Part shown: positions 47,230-57,107 of the stretch, piece by piece
Numbering within the stretch: the stretch's first letter is position 1
Layout of the letters: the number at the start of each line of letters is the position of its first letter
Source of the DNA: Candidatus Kuenenia stuttgartensis
GTDB taxonomy: Bacteria; Planctomycetota; Phycisphaerae; Phycisphaerales; SM1A02
Assembly (NCBI GenBank): GCA_945902075.1
Contig: CAMDMA010000018.1
Location: 1-64,000, forward strand
Length of the DNA stretch: 64,000 nucleotides
Direction: 5' to 3'
Translations under genes and position numbers: made by a program
Notes under the pieces: model-generated
Database searches by the model: none
What the model was told of the DNA's origin: nothing
Seen by the model: only the letters and a program-made list of their open reading frames with translations

Positions 47230-49314
47230 TTACGCGAACAACGCCGCACGCTCGCCGCGATCGATGAGCCGCTTTCCCGGAAGACCCCGGCCATGGGCGT
47301 CGAGGTACCGCCCGATCGCCATCGTCGGAAAGTACAGACGATAAAGGTGATAGCGCAGATAAAAGACTTTGGGGAAGCCGGTACCGGTGTATTCCGTTTC
47401 CCGCCAACTCCCGGCAGCGTCGCCATCCGGATTGGAAATCGGGTCGGCAGCCGAGAGCGAATCGAGTTGCGTGCGGCAGAGCCATTCGATCGCGCGGCGG
47501 AGATCGGGGTCCTCCGCACCAAAAACCTCTTGGAGCACCATCGCCGCCCAGGCGGTTTGACTCGCGGTCGATGGACCTTGCCCCTTGAGTGCGGGATTCT
47601 CGTAACTGTCGGCGCTCTCGCCGAAACTTCCGTCAGACTTCTGAATCGACTTCATCCAACGGCCGGCGCGCTGAATCCAAGGTTCATCTTTCGACACACC
47701 ACAGCGGATCGGGCCGATCACCGCCTGCCAAGTTCCGTAGATGTAATTCACGCCCCAACGGCCGAAGAAGCAGCCTTCAGGTTCTTGACGTGCGCGAATA
47801 AAAGCGAGTGCTGATGCGACAGTCGGATGCGTACGGTCGTACCCATGCCACGCGAGGCACTCGAGCACGCGCCCGGTGATGTCGGGGCACGACGGGTCCT
47901 GCATCGCGTTGTGGTCGGCAAACGGAACATAGTCGAGTATGGGCCGATGCCGCGTGCGATCAAACGCCGCCCAACCGCCATCGTCATTCTGCATCGCAAG
48001 CATCCAGCGCACGCCGCGTGCCGCTGCAGCACGATTCTTTTCGCCACCCACGCGCATGAGTGACATCGCGACCATCGCCGTGTCGTCGGAATCTGGGTAG
48101 TGCGCATTCGCATACTCGAAGTACCAACCACTCGGCGCGACCGACACATCAAGATTTTTCTGCCAGTCGCCGCGGAATCGGCATTCCCTCTGGACGAGCC
48201 ATTCCGCGGCGCGCTCCGCTTCCGCATCGTTGACGTTGAAGCCGCAATCTGCGAGCGCATAGAGCGCGATCCCGGTATCCCAAACTGGTGAGAAACAGGG
48301 CTGGATTCGGATCGGCGCATCGGCGCCCGCACCGAGTGGCACAAAAAACGCATCAAGCTCGCGCTCGGCACGAATCACGAGAGGATGGTTGCGCGCGTAG
48401 CCAAGCGCGTGCAACACAATCTGCCAATACACCATTGGGGGAAAGATCGCACCAACCCCGTCGGTGCGCGCAGAGCCATCTTGACCAGCGCGTGCGGCGA
48501 CCCAATCGAAGGCGCGATCAAGCGCGACCTTGCGCAACGGCGTGCCACCAAGGTCGTGGATTTTCTTGAGCACGCGGTCGACCCGCAAGAAAAATCGCTT
48601 CCACTTGGCCGGCGCATCATTCGTCGGCTTGAGCACATGCCGCGCATCGTGATCGATGAAGAGTTCGCCGATCCCGCATTCAACCGGAAGTTCCCGAGTC
48701 GGTCGCTTCGTCGCAACGATCGCAAGCGGCAAAATCATTGTGCGGCTCCACGCGCTCACCTTGTCGAGGTGAAAGGGGAACCAGCGAGGAAGCAGCACGA
48801 TTTCGGGCGGAATTGCAGGAACAGCGTTCCAAGAAATCTGCCCAAGCGCCGCGAGGTAAAAATTGGTGAATGAATTGCACTTCTCCGCACCACCCATGTG
48901 ATGGATGAGTGCGCGCGCCTTTTTCATGTGTGCGCTGTCCGGCGAGTCACCGAAAAGCTTGAGGCAAAAGTATGCCTTCACACACGCTGAGAGATCGGGC
49001 GCCGAGCGTGGGTACTGACCCCAGCCGCCATCGTCACGCTGTTGAGATCGCAAGTACGTCACGATGCGCCGAAGCGTTTCCGGCCCACGCCCGTCCGTCA
49101 AAGGCTGCGATTCTTGCCCAAGGATCCATTTCAGCAGCAGATACTCGCTCTGCAGAATCGAATCACCCTCAAGTTCCGCACACCAATGGCCGTCTGCGCG
49201 CTGTTGCGCTTTCAGTGCCCCAACCGCGCGCGCCAGGTGCTGCTCGAGTTCGGCATGGGAGAGCGGTCGCTCTTCATGCGCTGCGGGGGGGAACGAGTGC
49301 GGAACTTCGCGCAT
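47230..49314 (-). CDS. shc: Squalene-hopene cyclase
   Basis: This monotopic membrane enzyme cyclises squalene to hopene, the base of hopanoid lipids. The 694-residue product has the class II terpene-cyclase acid motif DSDDTAM (DxDD) near 405 and several QW repeats (QQRDDGGWGQ, QNDDGGWAAFD, QKSDGSFGES). GWYFEYANAHYPDSDDTAM and RWGVNYIYGTWQ are typical of SHC. ATG 49314 (MREVPHSFPP) is preferred; the open frame upstream has no homology. A HpnB-like glycosyltransferase at 25.6 kb is the only other hopanoid-linked candidate here. Confidence 0.95.
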   Translation of the reverse strand: MREVPHSFPPAAHEERPLSHAELEQHLARAVGALKAQQRADGHWCAELEGDSILQSEYLLLKWILGQESQPLTDGRGPETLRRIVTYLRSQQRDDGGWGQYPRSAPDLSACVKAYFCLKLFGDSPDSAHMKKARALIHHMGGAEKCNSFTNFYLAALGQISWNAVPAIPPEIVLLPRWFPFHLDKVSAWSRTMILPLAIVATKRPTRELPVECGIGELFIDHDARHVLKPTNDAPAKWKRFFLRVDRVLKKIHDLGGTPLRKVALDRAFDWVAARAGQDGSARTDGVGAIFPPMVYWQIVLHALGYARNHPLVIRAERELDAFFVPLGAGADAPIRIQPCFSPVWDTGIALYALADCGFNVNDAEAERAAEWLVQRECRFRGDWQKNLDVSVAPSGWYFEYANAHYPDSDDTAMVAMSLMRVGGEKNRAAAARGVRWMLAMQNDDGGWAAFDRTRHRPILDYVPFADHNAMQDPSCPDITGRVLECLAWHGYDRTHPTVASALAFIRARQEPEGCFFGRWGVNYIYGTWQAVIGPIRCGVSKDEPWIQRAGRWMKSIQKSDGSFGESADSYENPALKGQGPSTASQTAWAAMVLQEVFGAEDPDLRRAIEWLCRTQLDSLSAADPISNPDGDAAGSWRETEYTGTGFPKVFYLRYHLYRLYFPTMAIGRYLDAHGRGLPGKRLIDRGERAALFA

Positions 49315-49492
49315 CAGGATTCTCGGATCGGATCGCCAATGTAGCGGGCGACGACATCCAACATGGTGCGAAAAGTCATGAGGAAATCTGCTTACCGATC
49401 CGACGAGCAACACTCCGCTCGGATTGGCGTCCATGCGTCCCCGTTTTTCCGGTTCCGCGCAATCAAGTTGGCCCAGCTTGGCTCAGATTGGC

Positions 49493-50737
49493 TCAGAACT
49501 TGTCGAGTTCGCGGATGGGAACCGGACGGCGCTCGCGGGCGGAGCGAATCGCCGCTTCGAGCACGCACTGCGTCTTGAACGCGTCTTCAAAGTCGGGCAG
49601 CGCGACCACCGGTGAGCCACCGGCGATGACTGCACAGATGTCGGCGGCTTGGCTGATGAAACCTTGCTCGTAGCCGATCAAGTGTGCTGCTGGCCAGTAG
49701 TGCCCCGCGTACGGATGCGCTGCGTCGGTGCACATGATCCGGCTCCATCCGCGCAACTTTGGCTCGAGCGTGTGATCCCACCACTCGAGCTCATTCATGC
49801 GCTCAAAGTCAAACTTGATAGAGCCCTTTTCGCCGTTGATTTCGATGTTGTTGCGATTCTGGTTGCCCGTTGCGAGCCGCGACGCCTCGAAGCTCGCGAT
49901 CGCGCCCTGCTTGAAGCGCGCCAGAAACAATACGGCGTCGTCGACGGTCGACTTTCCTGACTTTCGGCCGCTGGAAGAAGACTTCGCGCCCTTCCCTGAG
50001 ATCTCGCCGCCCGAACTCGCGATCACTGCACGCTCTTTCACAAAGGTTTCTTCGATGGAGCCAACGACCTCGGTGACTTCGTCGCCCGTGATGAAGCGCG
50101 CCATATCGATGATGTGCGCATTGAGGTCGCCGTGCGCGCCAGAACCGGCGAGATCACCTTGAAAACGCCAGAGGAGTGGCGTATCAGGACCGCCCCAATC
50201 TTGAAGGTACGACGCACGTACATGGAAGATGCGCCCGAGTCGACCGTCTCGCACCAAGCGATGCGCAAACGCGACTGCTGGACAGCGACGATAGTTGTAC
50301 CAAACGAAAGTTTGCACGCCCTTCTTGCGCGCGGCCCGCGCAGCAAGCACCATGCGCTTTGCGTCGGCCAGTGTGCCCGCAAGCGGCTTCTCGCACGCGA
50401 CATGCTTGCCCGCTTCGAGGCAGGCAATCGACATCTCTGCATGAAGATGGTTCGGCGTCGAAACATCGACAAGTTCGACGGTGTCGTCGGTGAGCAAGTC
50501 ACGCCAGTTGGTGGTTGAAGCCTTCCACCCCCACTTGGTCGCGAAGACAGCGGTTTCATCTGGGTTGCGCCCAGCGACCGCGCTCATCACGGGATTGCGC
50601 TTCAGATCGAAAAACTGCGAAGCCTTGCTCCAGGCCGTCGAGTGGGCGCGGCCCATGAACTTGGTCCCGATCAGTCCGATGCCGATGGGGCCGGCAGAAG
50701 TTGTGCGGACGGACTTCTCTCGATCGTTCTTCGCCAT
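49493..50737 (-). CDS. Gfo/Idh/MocA family oxidoreductase
   Basis: A 414-residue NAD(P)-dependent dehydrogenase family protein: Rossmann start GIGLIGTKFMGRAHSTAW (about 18), nucleotide-binding STPNHLHAEM, and catalytic ACEKPLAGTLADAKRM with the Glu-Lys-Pro motif near 117. The C-terminal alpha-beta domain has HIIDMARFI and YYxR-like segments. A Ser/Gly/Lys-rich insert at about 245-270 (GKGAKSSSSGRKSGKS) interrupts the sheet region and is unusual. Substrates of this group are sugars and inositols; the one here is unknown. ATG 50737 starts MAKNDREKS. Confidence 0.9.
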   Translation of the reverse strand: MAKNDREKSVRTTSAGPIGIGLIGTKFMGRAHSTAWSKASQFFDLKRNPVMSAVAGRNPDETAVFATKWGWKASTTNWRDLLTDDTVELVDVSTPNHLHAEMSIACLEAGKHVACEKPLAGTLADAKRMVLAARAARKKGVQTFVWYNYRRCPAVAFAHRLVRDGRLGRIFHVRASYLQDWGGPDTPLLWRFQGDLAGSGAHGDLNAHIIDMARFITGDEVTEVVGSIEETFVKERAVIASSGGEISGKGAKSSSSGRKSGKSTVDDAVLFLARFKQGAIASFEASRLATGNQNRNNIEINGEKGSIKFDFERMNELEWWDHTLEPKLRGWSRIMCTDAAHPYAGHYWPAAHLIGYEQGFISQAADICAVIAGGSPVVALPDFEDAFKTQCVLEAAIRSARERRPVPIRELDKF

Positions 50738-50849: not shown

Positions 50850-52175
50850 ATGCCGAACAGCCACGAGTCCGATGCCCGCACGACCGACCTTCACGCCGAA
50901 TTCGCGTCGCTGCGCACCGAGGTTTCGCGACTTCGACGCGAAACTCGCTCCGCGCGCATCATCGGCGGATTCGCTGCGATGGGGCTCCTCCTCGGACTTG
51001 TCGCGATGCGCGATCCGCAGATTGTCCCCGTCATTCAGACGAAGCGCCTTGAGATTGTCGACAACGCCGGGCGGGTGACGGTGATGGCTTCGTCGACGGC
51101 GCAGGGCGGTCGGCTTGACCTCTGGGATTCGACCGGCGCCAACACCGCGCGGCTCGGCGCGAACGACCTTGGTGGCGATTTCATTCTGTGGTCTCGCGAC
51201 GGGAAGGCCGTCTTTGGCGCCTACGCGCAGCAGACTGGCGGTCGTGCCGAACTCGGGACAAACACAGGCCGCGTCGGCGCGTTTCTTGAGTCAGGCCCCA
51301 CGGGCGGTCGCATGAGCCTCGCTGATCCCTCGGGCGATCCGGTTGTCGCGGCGGGCGCGTCGGCAACGGGCGGCACGATCCGCGTGGCCGACGGAAAGAA
51401 CCGCGATGCTGCCGTTATTGAGTCGACGGAAAACGGCGGCAATATCTCGCTCTCATCTCCAGAAGGCACCGTGATGGCGCGAATCCGGGCCGGCGAGCGC
51501 GGCGGCGAATTCGACCTTGCTGGAAAAACGGGCGGCGGACGCGTGAGCGCATCTGTAAACGAAAACGAGAGTCTTGTGATCGCTGTTTCTGCGGCGGGCG
51601 CGGGCAAAATTGAAGCGAGCAAGGTCGGCGGAATGGTCGACGTGCTCAACGAAAATGGCGACCGCCTCGCGTCGCTCGAACGCAACGACGGCGGCGGACT
51701 GCTCGTTTGCCGGACGACTGGAGATCGACCGGTTGCGTCGCTTGGCGCAAGTGCGGGCCGCGCGAAGGGCGGACTGCTTCAGGTCTACAACGACCAGCAA
51801 AGCCCTGTCCTCGCGGGGGCCGTGAACGCTGAGGGCGCAGGTCGGCTTGCGATCGGGACGGCCGCCGGCGTGGCCACGCTCACCGCGGAGGCTGGCAAAG
51901 ACGACGGTGCGAGCATCAGCCTCGTGCGCGGCGGTAAGCGCTCGATTGCCTTCATCGCAGGCGCAAATGGCGGGCTCATGAACCTGTTCTCCGCTGCGGG
52001 AAACCCCTGTGTTGTCGCAGGAAACGCCGACGATGCCGCGGGCGGCGTGATTCTCATCCGCGCCGCCGAGGGCACGGACCTCGCGCGCATGGGTATCGAC
52101 GAAAAGGGTTCCGGCAACGTGGTGCTCTTCAACAAGGACGGAACCGAGCGGAAGACCGTCGCTGGTCCACGCTGA
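50850..52175 (+). CDS. Membrane-anchored beta-solenoid-like repeat protein
   Basis: No family is recognised. The 441-residue protein has a short coiled coil (about 15-36, DLHAEFASLRTEVSRLRRET), one membrane helix (about 39-55, GGFAAMGLLLGLVAM), and then roughly fourteen repeats of about 22-27 residues across 65-430. The repeat pattern is G-G-x-L-x-L-x-D/N-x-x-G-x-x-x-A-x-L-x-A, seen in GGRLDLWDSTGANTARLGA, GGRMSLADPSGDPVVAAGA, GGMVDVLNENGDRLASLE. Such glycine-rich repeats suggest a right-handed solenoid on the outer side of the membrane. The ATG 50850 start has GGAGATGAC just upstream. Two-thirds of the protein is extracytoplasmic. Confidence 0.75.
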   Translation: MPNSHESDARTTDLHAEFASLRTEVSRLRRETRSARIIGGFAAMGLLLGLVAMRDPQIVPVIQTKRLEIVDNAGRVTVMASSTAQGGRLDLWDSTGANTARLGANDLGGDFILWSRDGKAVFGAYAQQTGGRAELGTNTGRVGAFLESGPTGGRMSLADPSGDPVVAAGASATGGTIRVADGKNRDAAVIESTENGGNISLSSPEGTVMARIRAGERGGEFDLAGKTGGGRVSASVNENESLVIAVSAAGAGKIEASKVGGMVDVLNENGDRLASLERNDGGGLLVCRTTGDRPVASLGASAGRAKGGLLQVYNDQQSPVLAGAVNAEGAGRLAIGTAAGVATLTAEAGKDDGASISLVRGGKRSIAFIAGANGGLMNLFSAAGNPCVVAGNADDAAGGVILIRAAEGTDLARMGIDEKGSGNVVLFNKDGTERKTVAGPR

Positions 52176-52236: not shown

Positions 52237-53439
52237 ATGCTCTCCCACTTTCTCGTGGCGTTGGTTGGTTTCGCCGCATCTGCCCCGGCCGCGGCGCAAC
52301 CGTTCGTACAGACGGCACCATCGCGCGCGGCGGACGATTCAGAAACCGAGTTTCCCGAGGAGTGGTTCTGGCGTCTGGGCAGTGCAGGCAAGGCGCACCG
52401 CGCGATGGTCGGCAAGGCACCCCCCGCACTCACTGTGCGTGACTGGCGCGGAAGCGATGCCGCGCTCGAACCCATCGCCAAGGCGAGTGGCGATGTTCTC
52501 ACCGCGCTCAAGGGAAAAGTCGTCGTCGTTGATTTTTGGGCGACATGGTGCGGGCCCTGCCGAAAGGCGCTTCCCGAAAATGTTGCGATGGTGAAGGAAC
52601 TTGGTTCGAAGGGCTTGATCGTGATTGGCGTGCACGATGCAGCGCGCGGCAGCGAACGCATGGACGAGATCGCGAAAGGCGCGAGCATCAACTATCCGCT
52701 CGCGATCGACGATGGCGGCGCGAGCGCGAAGGCATGGAATGTTGGTTTCTGGCCGACGTACGCCGTGATTGATCGTGCAGGCACCCTTCGCGCAATCGGG
52801 CTGCAGCCCGAACGTGTCCGCGCGGTTGCTGAGAAACTCCTCGCCGAAGGCGGTGCAAAGCCGTCGAAACCAGAGACGACGCCAAGTTCGCCACCTCCCA
52901 TCAAGAATGGGCGTGAACTCGAAGCGACGACAACTCCAGTGCGACTCGAAACCTCTCTGCTTGAGGGCGATACCCGCCGTCGCGCCAAACTCGCGGACTT
53001 CGACCTTTGTCCCGTGGCCCCGTCACTTGGTGCTGCAACGCAATGGACCGACAGCGGTGGCGCGCTCGGCACTGCGAAATCGCTCGACGAACTCAAGGGC
53101 AAGATTGTGGTGCTCGACTTTTGGGCAACCTGGTGTGGCCCATGCATCGCAAGCATTCCAATGATGAACGAGGTCGCGCGCAAATACTCTGCGGATGGCG
53201 TGGTGATCCTTGGTGTTTGTCACAAGGACGGCGGCGCAAAAATGCTCGAAACAGCGCGCGCGAAGGGTATCGCCTATCCCATCTGTCTTGATGCGATGGG
53301 TGAAGCCAACGTGGCCTTCAAGGTCGACAGTTATCCCGATTACTACATCGTTGATCGCGCTGGCCGCCTCCGCGGCGCGGACATCGCAAGCGCGCAACTC
53401 GAGAGTGCGATCAAGAAGCTCATCGCTGAAAAGCCGTGA
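52237..53439 (+). CDS. Exported double-thioredoxin (TlpA-like) protein
   Basis: A 400-residue protein with a signal peptide (about 1-21) and two TlpA/ResA-like thioredoxin domains. Domain 1 (about 85-215) has VVDFWATWCGPCRKALPEN and domain 2 (about 270-398) has VVLDFWATWCGPCIASIPMM, each with an intact WCGPC. The linker (about 208-250) is Pro/Thr-rich. Periplasmic TlpA-like proteins reduce disulfides or feed cytochrome c maturation; a DsbD at 8.9 kb could supply electrons. Two tandem active domains in one chain is unusual. Its ATG is 61 bp downstream of the repeat protein gene on the same strand. Confidence 0.92.
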   Translation: MLSHFLVALVGFAASAPAAAQPFVQTAPSRAADDSETEFPEEWFWRLGSAGKAHRAMVGKAPPALTVRDWRGSDAALEPIAKASGDVLTALKGKVVVVDFWATWCGPCRKALPENVAMVKELGSKGLIVIGVHDAARGSERMDEIAKGASINYPLAIDDGGASAKAWNVGFWPTYAVIDRAGTLRAIGLQPERVRAVAEKLLAEGGAKPSKPETTPSSPPPIKNGRELEATTTPVRLETSLLEGDTRRRAKLADFDLCPVAPSLGAATQWTDSGGALGTAKSLDELKGKIVVLDFWATWCGPCIASIPMMNEVARKYSADGVVILGVCHKDGGAKMLETARAKGIAYPICLDAMGEANVAFKVDSYPDYYIVDRAGRLRGADIASAQLESAIKKLIAEKP

Positions 53440-55413: not shown

Positions 55414-55968
55414 ATGGAACGAACCTGCGACTGCTGCCCGAACCCTGCCGTGGTGCACGAGACCGTCGTGCATTCGGGTATCCAGACCGAAGTGCATCTG
55501 TGCGCCGAGCACGCTGAGCAGCGCGGGTACATCCTGCCATCGGCGACTGGTCCAGCGCTCATCGTGGGGAAACTTCTGCAACAGGTGCAGTCGGCAGCAG
55601 CGCGCCCCGCCAACGCATGCGCCTCCTGTGGCACCACGATGGCGACCGTGCGCGAGACGGGCCTTGTCGGTTGCCCACTTTGCTATCGACATTTCGAAGA
55701 CGCGCTCGGCGCAGTGATCTCGCGCGCTCAAGCGGGCGCGTCGGTCCATGTTGGTCGGCATCCTGCGCACGCGGCTGACCTTGTCGATCGCGCTGCGATG
55801 CGGAACCGTCTGGCACGCGAACTCCGCGAGGCGGTGTCCCGCGAAGAGTACGAACGCGCTGCGAAACTTCGCGATCGGCTGCATGCGATCGGTGGAAGCC
55901 CAAGCGACGCATTCGCCTCTGCGGACGCCGACGACGCGACGCGGGTAGAAGGCGGTTCGGCCGAATGA
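55414..55968 (+). CDS. mcsA: McsA, activator of protein arginine kinase
   Basis: McsA binds zinc and activates the McsB kinase. The 184-residue protein has a first Cys cluster (TCDCCPNPA, then LCAEHA), a second CxxC pair (CASCG ... CPLCYRHF), and a C-terminal UVR motif (REEYERAAKLRDRLH-like, near 150) similar to those of UvrB and ClpC. This layout is typical of McsA. Its stop overlaps the mcsB start (ATGA), and they form the standard pair. Confidence 0.94.
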   Translation: MERTCDCCPNPAVVHETVVHSGIQTEVHLCAEHAEQRGYILPSATGPALIVGKLLQQVQSAAARPANACASCGTTMATVRETGLVGCPLCYRHFEDALGAVISRAQAGASVHVGRHPAHAADLVDRAAMRNRLARELREAVSREEYERAAKLRDRLHAIGGSPSDAFASADADDATRVEGGSAE

Positions 55969-57107
55969 GTACTTCTGGACGCGAACCCATCGACGATGAG
56001 CGCACACCGGAAGGGCGCGGTTCGCAACAACCGCACGCCTCACCACTCATCGGCTTCGGCGACGCGTGGGGTGATGCGCGGGGTGATGCGCGGGGTGGCA
56101 GCGAAATCCCCTGCGGCGACTGCGTCCTTTCGAGCCGCATTCGGCTTGCGCGAAACCTCGTTGGATTTTCCTTCGTCAATCGCGCAACACAGTCGCAGCT
56201 CTCTGATGTCGTGCACCGCGTGCAAGCCACGCGCCTTGGTGGGCCATTTGAGTCGGGTGTGCGCTGGGTCAATGTGCAGGCGACCGCGCCCGTCGATCGA
56301 CTGCTGCTCTTCGAGCGGAATCTCATCTCGCGGCCCTTTGTTGAAGCAACGCATCCGCGCTGCGTCGCGATCTCGACCGACGAAACGGCGAGCGTCATGG
56401 TGAATGAAGAAGATCACCTCCGGTTGCAGATGCTCGCGCCTGGCCTACAACTGCGACCGCTCGCCGAGCGCATGTTTGCTCTCGACAGCGCGCTTGATCG
56501 TGGCCTTGAATTCGCGTTTCATCCGCGCTTTGGCTACCTCACCGCCTGTCCGACCAATGTCGGCACGGGCATCCGCGTGAGCGCGATGCTCCATCTTCCG
56601 GCGCTCCACATGCTTGAGGAACTTGAGAAGGTGCAGCGCGCGGCCAAGGATCTGCACCTCGCCGTTCGAGGCTTCCACGGCGAAGGAACCGACGCGCTCG
56701 GCGACTTCTTCCAAGTTTCGAACCAGACCACACTCGGCCGCAGTGAACAGGATCTCGTCGATGAATTCACCGACTCGATCGTGCCGCGCTTTGTCGAGTA
56801 CGAACGCGCCGCACGCCGCGCGCTCTGTGAACGCGACCTTGCGTCGCTTGATGACCGCGTCTTCCGCGCGCTTGGCATCCTTCGCGCGTGTCGTTTGCTT
56901 GCGCTTGATGAGGCAATTAAGTTTCTCTCGCGCGTGAGGCTCGGTGTCGCGCTCGGGCGCATCTCCGATATCCCACTCGGGCTGGTGAATCGTCTACTTC
57001 TCGAAGTGCAGCCCGCGCATCTTGCCCGTGCGCGCGGCGGCGAACTCGGAAACGGTCGCGACGATCGTGCGGCGCGCGCCGATCTTATTCGCGCGGCGCT
57101 GCGCTAA
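55965..57107 (+). CDS. mcsB: Protein arginine kinase McsB
   Basis: McsB phosphorylates arginine residues on proteins to mark them for ClpCP. The 380-residue guanido kinase-like protein has VLSSRIRLARNL near 54, the catalytic VNEEDHLRLQ near 145, TACPTNVGTGIRVSAML (near 190) with the active-site Cys, and GFHGEGTDALGDFFQVSNQ with TTLGRSEQDL near 230. A Gly/Asp repeat (GDARGDARGG, from duplicated ggtgatgcgcg units) precedes the domain. The C terminus keeps the phosphoarginine-binding helical region. It is the final gene of the mcsAB pair. Confidence 0.95.
   Translation: MSTSGREPIDDERTPEGRGSQQPHASPLIGFGDAWGDARGDARGGSEIPCGDCVLSSRIRLARNLVGFSFVNRATQSQLSDVVHRVQATRLGGPFESGVRWVNVQATAPVDRLLLFERNLISRPFVEATHPRCVAISTDETASVMVNEEDHLRLQMLAPGLQLRPLAERMFALDSALDRGLEFAFHPRFGYLTACPTNVGTGIRVSAMLHLPALHMLEELEKVQRAAKDLHLAVRGFHGEGTDALGDFFQVSNQTTLGRSEQDLVDEFTDSIVPRFVEYERAARRALCERDLASLDDRVFRALGILRACRLLALDEAIKFLSRVRLGVALGRISDIPLGLVNRLLLEVQPAHLARARGGELGNGRDDRAARADLIRAALR

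What the first reader, a model, noticed from the sequence alone, without database searches (positions are those of the whole stretch)
50850..52175. Uncharacterised membrane-anchored repeat protein
About fourteen glycine-rich repeats of 22-27 residues with a regular pattern predict an elongated solenoid on the outside of the membrane, fixed by an N-terminal helix and coiled coil. No known family was recognised; the neighbouring double-thioredoxin protein may be its partner.
Basis: partly seen in the sequence, partly recalled or inferred. Interest (0 to 1): 0.6.

Follow-up and report, generated by a model that had tools for sequence, protein, structure and literature searches.

The report
Membrane-anchored beta-hairpin repeat protein
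A lake-dwelling planctomycete carries a gene for a long protein made of repeated hairpins and held in the cell membrane by one helix; its relatives are widespread but uncatalogued, and the predicted shape is a ribbon-like single sheet, not a coil, with an unknown job on the outside of the membrane.

Summary
ORF 50850-52175 (+, 441 aa) is a real gene under purifying selection, with a cytoplasmic coiled coil, one membrane helix and about 16-17 glycine-rich repeats, seven of them exactly 22 residues apart. No Pfam, NCBIfam, PHROGs or PDB-sequence family matches it above its cut-off. Two AlphaFold2 models (window protein; a 529-aa relative) agree on a continuous beta-meander. They match OspA, CPAP TCP10, MORN and RHS/teneurin hairpin sheets, so 'solenoid' is not the right word. 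One face is strongly hydrophobic (unlike the fully hydrated TCP10 sheet), so I infer homo-oligomer packing: an extracytoplasmic fibre or spacer. The oligomeric state and the function are untested.

The thioredoxin gene is a genus-level neighbour. In 36 scored family genomes, 12 have both genes, 15 the repeat gene only, 6 thioredoxin only and 3 neither (no association, Fisher p 0.44). A conserved cysteine confined to the thioredoxin-linked clade is the one hint for partnership.

Distant relatives (coiled coil, membrane helix, VxxxxFxxVDxxGxVRAxL repeats) occur in 38 of 148 other Planctomycetota genomes searched, and on Nitrospirota plasmids. This is an uncatalogued repeat family with a known kind of fold. 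Interest is moderate.

The parts
50850..52175 (+). Gene of the membrane-anchored hairpin-repeat protein, 441 aa
   Evidence: ORF; relatives in 27 of 61 genomes, own genome included; dN/dS 0.11-0.37 against six relatives
50889..50951 (+). Predicted cytoplasmic coiled coil, residues 14-34
   Evidence: Helix in the AlphaFold2 model; a/d positions L14, F18, L21, V25, L28
50952..51008 (+). Membrane helix, residues 35-53
   Evidence: Most hydrophobic 19-mer, mean Kyte-Doolittle 1.9; 5 K/R in the 15 residues before it, 2 in the 15 after it
51042..51239 (+). Membrane-proximal first hairpins, residues 65-130 (RLEIVD..GR, GGRLDLW, GGDFILW): the most conserved part of the family
   Evidence: 9 of the 16 invariant columns of the 22-row alignment A1 fall in residues 68-130, none in 131-330
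51105..51566 (+). Seven repeats whose GG pairs are exactly 22 residues apart (residues 86-239)
   Evidence: GG spacing and autocorrelation; pLDDT mostly above 90
51567..52172 (+). Less regular repeats and C-terminal strands (residues 240-441), with Cys287
   Evidence: Strands in the model; repeat HMM hits at 260, 307, 331, 374
52237..53439 (+). Downstream neighbour: exported-looking protein with two thioredoxin-like (AhpC-TSA/Redoxin) domains, each with WCGPC
   Evidence: Pfam AhpC-TSA E 1.8e-35, 2 stretches; same order in 12 of 27 repeat-gene genomes
49493..50734 (-). Divergent neighbour: Gfo/Idh/MocA oxidoreductase
   Evidence: Pfam GFO_IDH_MocA E 3.3e-23; next to the repeat gene in 14 of 27 genomes

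Best explanation
It is an extracytoplasmic structural fibre or spacer. The N-terminus stays in the cytoplasm as a short coiled coil, one helix crosses the membrane, and the rest is a continuous antiparallel beta-meander of about 17 hairpins (34 strands, roughly 16 nm at 4.8 A per strand if extended). Each 22-residue repeat is strand (GGxLxLx), [ND]xxG turn, strand (xVxAxA), two-residue turn. One face carries the hydrophobic and small residues, the other the charged ones, so the sheet most likely packs on copies of itself (the coiled coil would bring two or three chains together). Length is set by repeat number; the conserved part is the membrane-proximal end. Shown: the gene, the repeats, the two-faced pattern, the family, selection. 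Predicted by program: fold, topology. Inferred: oligomer, spacer role. The thioredoxin protein is a neighbour, not a necessary partner.
For: Two models on different proteins give the same strand-turn-strand series (pLDDT 83.1 and 82.7, most ten-residue blocks of residues 101-300 at 90 or more). Best fold matches are antiparallel hairpin sheets: OspA Z 12.6 (261 residues, rmsd 8.8), TCP10 Z 11.2 (161, 8.9), MORN1 Z 10.8 (184, 6.3); second model 6kk9 OspA Z 14.6 (166 residues, rmsd 4.9). Over 395 repeats, positions 4 and 6 are 96-98% hydrophobic and 15, 17 and 19 almost only hydrophobic or small residues; in the window protein the two faces average +2.1 and -0.8 Kyte-Doolittle, charged or amide residues 5 of 59 against 27 of 62. 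Ectodomains of the near relatives with whole genes range from 200 (L043) to 467 residues (L042) while both ends stay conserved. R-h-x-x-h-E, a coiled-coil trimer motif (recalled), is in 17 of 27 N-termini against 1.7 expected when the hydrophobic pattern is kept.
Against: No coordinates were inspected: antiparallel pairing is inferred from the two-residue turns and from the matches. AlphaFold2 can give regular folds to any strong repeat; alignments were shallow (14 and 7 rows), pTM only 0.58 and 0.49. The rmsd values are large. No oligomer was modelled. The trimer motif is absent from the window protein and from all 8 genus-type rows of the 27. Nothing ties the gene to a pathway: its neighbours change between sub-lineages, and it is missing from an otherwise intact locus in six genomes.
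Confidence: 0.5

Rival explanations
1. It is a partner or substrate of the downstream double-thioredoxin protein: the pair acts in envelope thiol chemistry, the repeat protein being a scaffold held near the membrane.
For: Same strand, 61 bp apart in the window, no terminator-like site on + between them, conserved order in 12 of 27 repeat-gene genomes and in three further named contigs L038, L040, L041. A Cys in GGxxxCR context (Cys287) is present in all thioredoxin-adjacent proteins except L006 and L021, and in none of the others.
Against: 15 of 36 scored genomes have the repeat gene without the thioredoxin gene at the locus, 6 the reverse; odds ratio 0.4, p 0.44. The conserved cysteine has no conserved second one, so an internal disulphide is unlikely, and it sits on the hydrophobic face; it follows one clade, so it may be ancestry only.
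Confidence: 0.12
2. It is a two-sheeted beta-solenoid (curli- or HET-s-like), in which each 22-residue repeat is one coil and the hydrophobic residues point inward.
For: The period (22) and the strand-loop-strand pattern with inward hydrophobic positions would fit a flat solenoid too.
Against: Both models and their best matches are hairpin sheets; the two-residue turn pairs positions 19-2, 17-4 and 15-6, all hydrophobic or small, as in a hairpin.
Confidence: 0.15
3. The hydrophobic face is a lipid or hydrophobic-ligand track between membranes, like bridge-type lipid carriers (AsmA/TamB type, recalled), anchored in the inner membrane.
For: Membrane anchor, long amphipathic antiparallel sheet, length of the order of an envelope.
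Against: Strands are only 7-8 residues, the face is rich in Ala and Gly, which suits close packing more than a groove; no AsmA-like or Lpt Pfam domain; LptD rows in the fold lists have rmsd above 30 A.
Confidence: 0.08

Closest known systems
CPAP/TCP10 (G-box) domain
   Same: Free-standing single-layer antiparallel meander of glycine-rich hairpins, often with PDG turns (passages of PMC3776556; Z 11.2, rmsd 8.9 over 161 residues)
   Different: TCP10 lacks a hydrophobic core and has both faces hydrated; here one face is strongly hydrophobic, there is a membrane anchor, and no sequence match was found
OspA central single-layer sheet and its engineered extensions
   Same: Best Z values for both models (12.6 and 14.6)
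   Different: OspA is a lipoprotein whose sheet is capped by globular domains (recalled; PMC3776556 makes that contrast for the engineered forms); identity 4-13% in the OspA rows
MORN repeats
   Same: 23-residue repeat, one hairpin each, Gly in a type I turn (passages of PMC7725318); Z 10.8
   Different: MORN consensus GxG...YEGEW and a six-residue linker between hairpins; here GGxLxL...[ND]xxG and a two-residue turn; no Pfam MORN match in the window protein
RHS/YD repeats and teneurin shells
   Same: Many consecutive hairpins; top Foldseek rows for the second model
   Different: Those chains are mostly 660-2100 residues and form closed shells (lengths; shells recalled); global TM below 0.2; Pfam RHS reached no cut-off in the window protein or ten other relatives
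Distant planctomycete and Nitrospirota proteins with VxxxxFxxVDxxGxVRAxL repeats
   Same: Coiled coil, membrane helix, hairpin-like repeats; profile match 99.5%, E 3.4e-22
   Different: Mostly shorter, turns with GP or DG in place of GG, C-terminus often WxAP; listed as hypothetical proteins where annotated

Membership tests
MORN repeat | Sequence match to Pfam MORN models above cut-off | tested here: not met
   No MORN model among the Pfam matches of the window protein up to E 10; MORN_2 only E 0.054, under cut-off, in one distant relative
MORN repeat | YEGEW-type second strand and six-residue linker (PMC7725318, passages) | tested here: not met
   Repeat consensus GG-R-L-D-L-W-N..G...V.A.A with a two-residue turn
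CPAP TCP10 / G-box | Single-layer antiparallel meander of hairpin repeats | tested here: inconclusive
   Models match at Z 11.2-11.5 but rmsd is 8.9-9.3 A; no coordinates inspected
CPAP TCP10 / G-box | No hydrophobic core, both faces hydrated | tested here: not met
   One face mean +2.1, the other -0.8
OspA-like lipoprotein | Lipobox cysteine after the N-terminal helix; capping globular domain | tested here: not met
   No cysteine in or just after residues 35-53; no C-terminal globular domain in the model
RHS/YD repeat | RHS/YD models above cut-off | tested here: not met
   No RHS model for the window protein; PF03527 under cut-off in two distant relatives
Curli/HET-s type beta-solenoid | Parallel stacked coils | tested here: inconclusive
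   Both models give hairpin meanders, but only by prediction
Trimeric coiled-coil fibre proteins | Trimeric assembly | not testable with these tools
   No multimer prediction on hand; motif statistics only

The most novel reading that the evidence does not exclude
A widespread, so far unnamed class of bacterial envelope fibres: two or three membrane-anchored chains zip their one-sided (amphipathic) beta-meanders together into a prism-like rod of variable length, a way of burying a single-layer sheet that OspA and TCP10 do not use.
Probability: 0.2. Interest if true: 0.6.

Novelty: new variant of a known kind. Interest (0 to 1): 0.4.

Why it matters
Single-layer beta-meanders are rare in solved natural proteins; the TCP10 authors called theirs unique among natural proteins in being free-standing (PMC3776556, passages). 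A bacterial family built almost wholly of such hairpins, with distant relatives in about a quarter of the planctomycete genomes sampled (38 of 148) and no Pfam or NCBIfam model that reached its cut-off, would add a natural series of sheets of different length for studying how they avoid aggregation, and would give a name and a testable role to many 'hypothetical' envelope proteins.

Tried and rejected
Thioredoxin partnership: tested by co-occurrence and by cysteine conservation; no association, one weak hint kept as a rival.

Small C-terminally anchored protein downstream of the repeat gene in eight other genomes (G019, G022, G023, G025, G027, G034, G035, G036) and in L042 and L043 as a partner: rejected as dedicated, because it is in 51 of 61 genomes, including many without the repeat gene.

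Phage or mobile origin: no match in 50,697 phage records with the L042 protein, none of 175 pattern stretches confirmed in viral contigs, none in plasmids with the window protein. In these collections nothing speaks for it.

Weak family names rejected: NCBIfam NF058648 (20 bits, cut-off 100) and Pfam DUF7552 (12.9 bits, cut-off 27) for the window protein. L074 (WD40-like repeats on reading) is a false positive and was dropped before the later counts; its genome G095 has another true match. The own genome is one of the 27 matches, of the 22 and of the 39.

Not listed in the fold tables, which says nothing final: curli, HET-s and other beta-solenoids.

Literature: only the listings were seen, plus passages of PMC3776556, PMC7725318 and PMC13055192. 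No description of this family was found in them; that is not proof of absence. That R-h-x-x-h-E favours trimers is recalled; one search shows only that papers use the motif name.

Full report
The window lies in a 3.3 Mb, 97% complete genome. Its closest named matches are metagenome-assembled genomes called Planctomycetota, Planctomycetaceae, Phycisphaera or Phycisphaerales, several of them with lake or pond names (one contig is labelled Limnohabitans, probably mis-binned, and one 'uncultured bacterium'), so the organism is most likely a freshwater Phycisphaerales-like planctomycete.

The gene. ORF 50850-52175 (+) codes for 441 aa and is the only copy in the genome. Relatives are in 27 of 61 genomes searched, all 27 among the 37 of the same family (own genome included) and 0 of 24 from other families of the order. 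Purifying selection is clear. With a profile of 22 relatives (A1), 22 of 149 genomes of the phylum match at 1e-5, the own genome included.

Anatomy. Residues 14-34 show a coiled-coil pattern (L14, F18, L21, V25, L28) and 35-53 a membrane helix. In 27 rows, 3-6 K/R stand in the 15 residues before the helix and 0-4 in the 15 after it, so N-in is the best guess and the repeats lie outside the cytoplasm. The repeats are 22 residues long at seven consecutive GG pairs and less regular after about residue 225. Of 16 invariant columns in A1, nine fall in residues 68-130 and seven in 331-422, none between. Ectodomain length among the near relatives with whole genes runs from 200 (L043) to 467 (L042) residues. 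So the ends are conserved and the middle varies in length.

Fold. AlphaFold2 gave mean pLDDT 83.1 (pTM 0.58, 14 rows) for the window protein and 82.7 (pTM 0.49, 7 rows) for the 529-aa relative L042: 34 and 42 strands, mostly alternating two-residue and about five-residue turns. Foldseek and VIA-align put OspA sheets, CPAP TCP10, MORN1, junctophilin and RHS/teneurin chains on top, all hairpin meanders as far as I know them; in the viral library most of the named rows are MORN proteins. The rmsd values are large, as one would expect for long flexible sheets, and I did not inspect coordinates. The position profile of 395 repeats fits hairpins: across the two-residue turn positions 19-2, 17-4 and 15-6 pair, and all are hydrophobic or small; the other face is mostly polar. 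In the window protein the two faces average +2.1 and -0.8 on the Kyte-Doolittle scale. The TCP10 sheet, by contrast, is described as hydrated on both sides and lacking a hydrophobic core (passages of PMC3776556). A one-sided sheet has to bury that side; packing against its own copies is the simplest answer, and the N-terminal coiled coil would hold the chains together. R-h-x-x-h-E occurs in 17 of 27 N-termini (mean 1.7, maximum 7 in 2000 pattern-preserving shuffles), but in none of the eight genus-type rows, the window protein included. The rows are related, so this is a hint only.

Neighbours. On the left is a divergent Gfo/Idh/MocA oxidoreductase, next to the repeat gene in 14 of 27 genomes. 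On the right is the two-domain thioredoxin-like gene, next to it in 12 of 27. In G007, G008, G012, G013, G021 and G028 the oxidoreductase and thioredoxin genes stand side by side with no repeat gene between them and with no remnant found (best tblastn E 1.1). On a tree of 23 oxidoreductase proteins the rows without the repeat gene need two changes, and four of them nest among genus rows that have it: a clean loss in one sub-clade is the simplest reading, though the root is arbitrary and several branches are long. Scoring 36 of the 37 family genomes by hand (G014 set aside, its contig starts inside the thioredoxin gene) gives both 12, repeat only 15, thioredoxin only 6, neither 3; Fisher p 0.44. 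Three of the 15 (G018, G025, G033) have short contigs or contig ends near the gene, so 'no thioredoxin' is less sure there. Cys287 is conserved in the thioredoxin-linked clade except L006, and absent from the linked but distant L021.

In eight other family genomes and in L042 and L043 the next gene is a small C-terminally anchored protein without a Pfam family, followed in the two loci scanned by RNase III. Since that protein is in 51 of 61 genomes, this is synteny and not a dedicated pair.

Wider family. Nine distant relatives, none from the window's family, give profile A5; hhalign A1 against A5 is 99.5%, E 3.4e-22, and spans the coiled coil, membrane helix and repeats. A5 finds the window gene at 3.9e-9 and matches 39 of 149 genomes, the own genome included. 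Eight of A5's nine members were found with A1, so the two are not independent, and repeats inflate scores. The ninth comes from a plasmid: a search with the L046 protein matched hypothetical proteins on three Nitrospirota (Candidatus Manganitrophus) plasmids, and the one I opened stands next to metal-efflux genes. Neither the window protein nor ten other relatives reaches a Pfam or NCBIfam cut-off. So the family is real and uncatalogued in these libraries.

Verdict. Real gene, real repeats, uncatalogued family with a known kind of fold; the solenoid is better called a single-layer beta-meander; the partner claim is not supported; the fibre/spacer role is the best inference, at about even odds.

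Noticed in passing
window 55414-57107 (+): A UVR-motif protein followed by an ATP:guanido phosphotransferase: looks like the McsA-McsB protein-arginine kinase pair (name recalled) in a planctomycete.
   Followed up: no
window 47233-49434 (-): Squalene-hopene cyclase (both Pfam domains, E 5e-100 or lower), two genes left of the finding and near the repeat gene in many relatives.
   Followed up: no
L042:7719-8219, L043:7017-7478, L082:8512-8979 and similar: Conserved 154-198 aa protein with a C-terminal hydrophobic helix and a DPTDPRW...FDANLIIA core, no Pfam family, present in 51 of 61 genomes.
   Followed up: partly
L098 (CP114563.1 45258-55746): Distant relative of the repeat protein sits between an RND metal-efflux operon and an ArsR-type regulator on a Candidatus Manganitrophus plasmid.
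   Followed up: no
L049, L047: Very long distant relatives (about 490-690 aa as called) with many repeats; L047 has strongly regular GG-type repeats in another planctomycete family.
   Followed up: no
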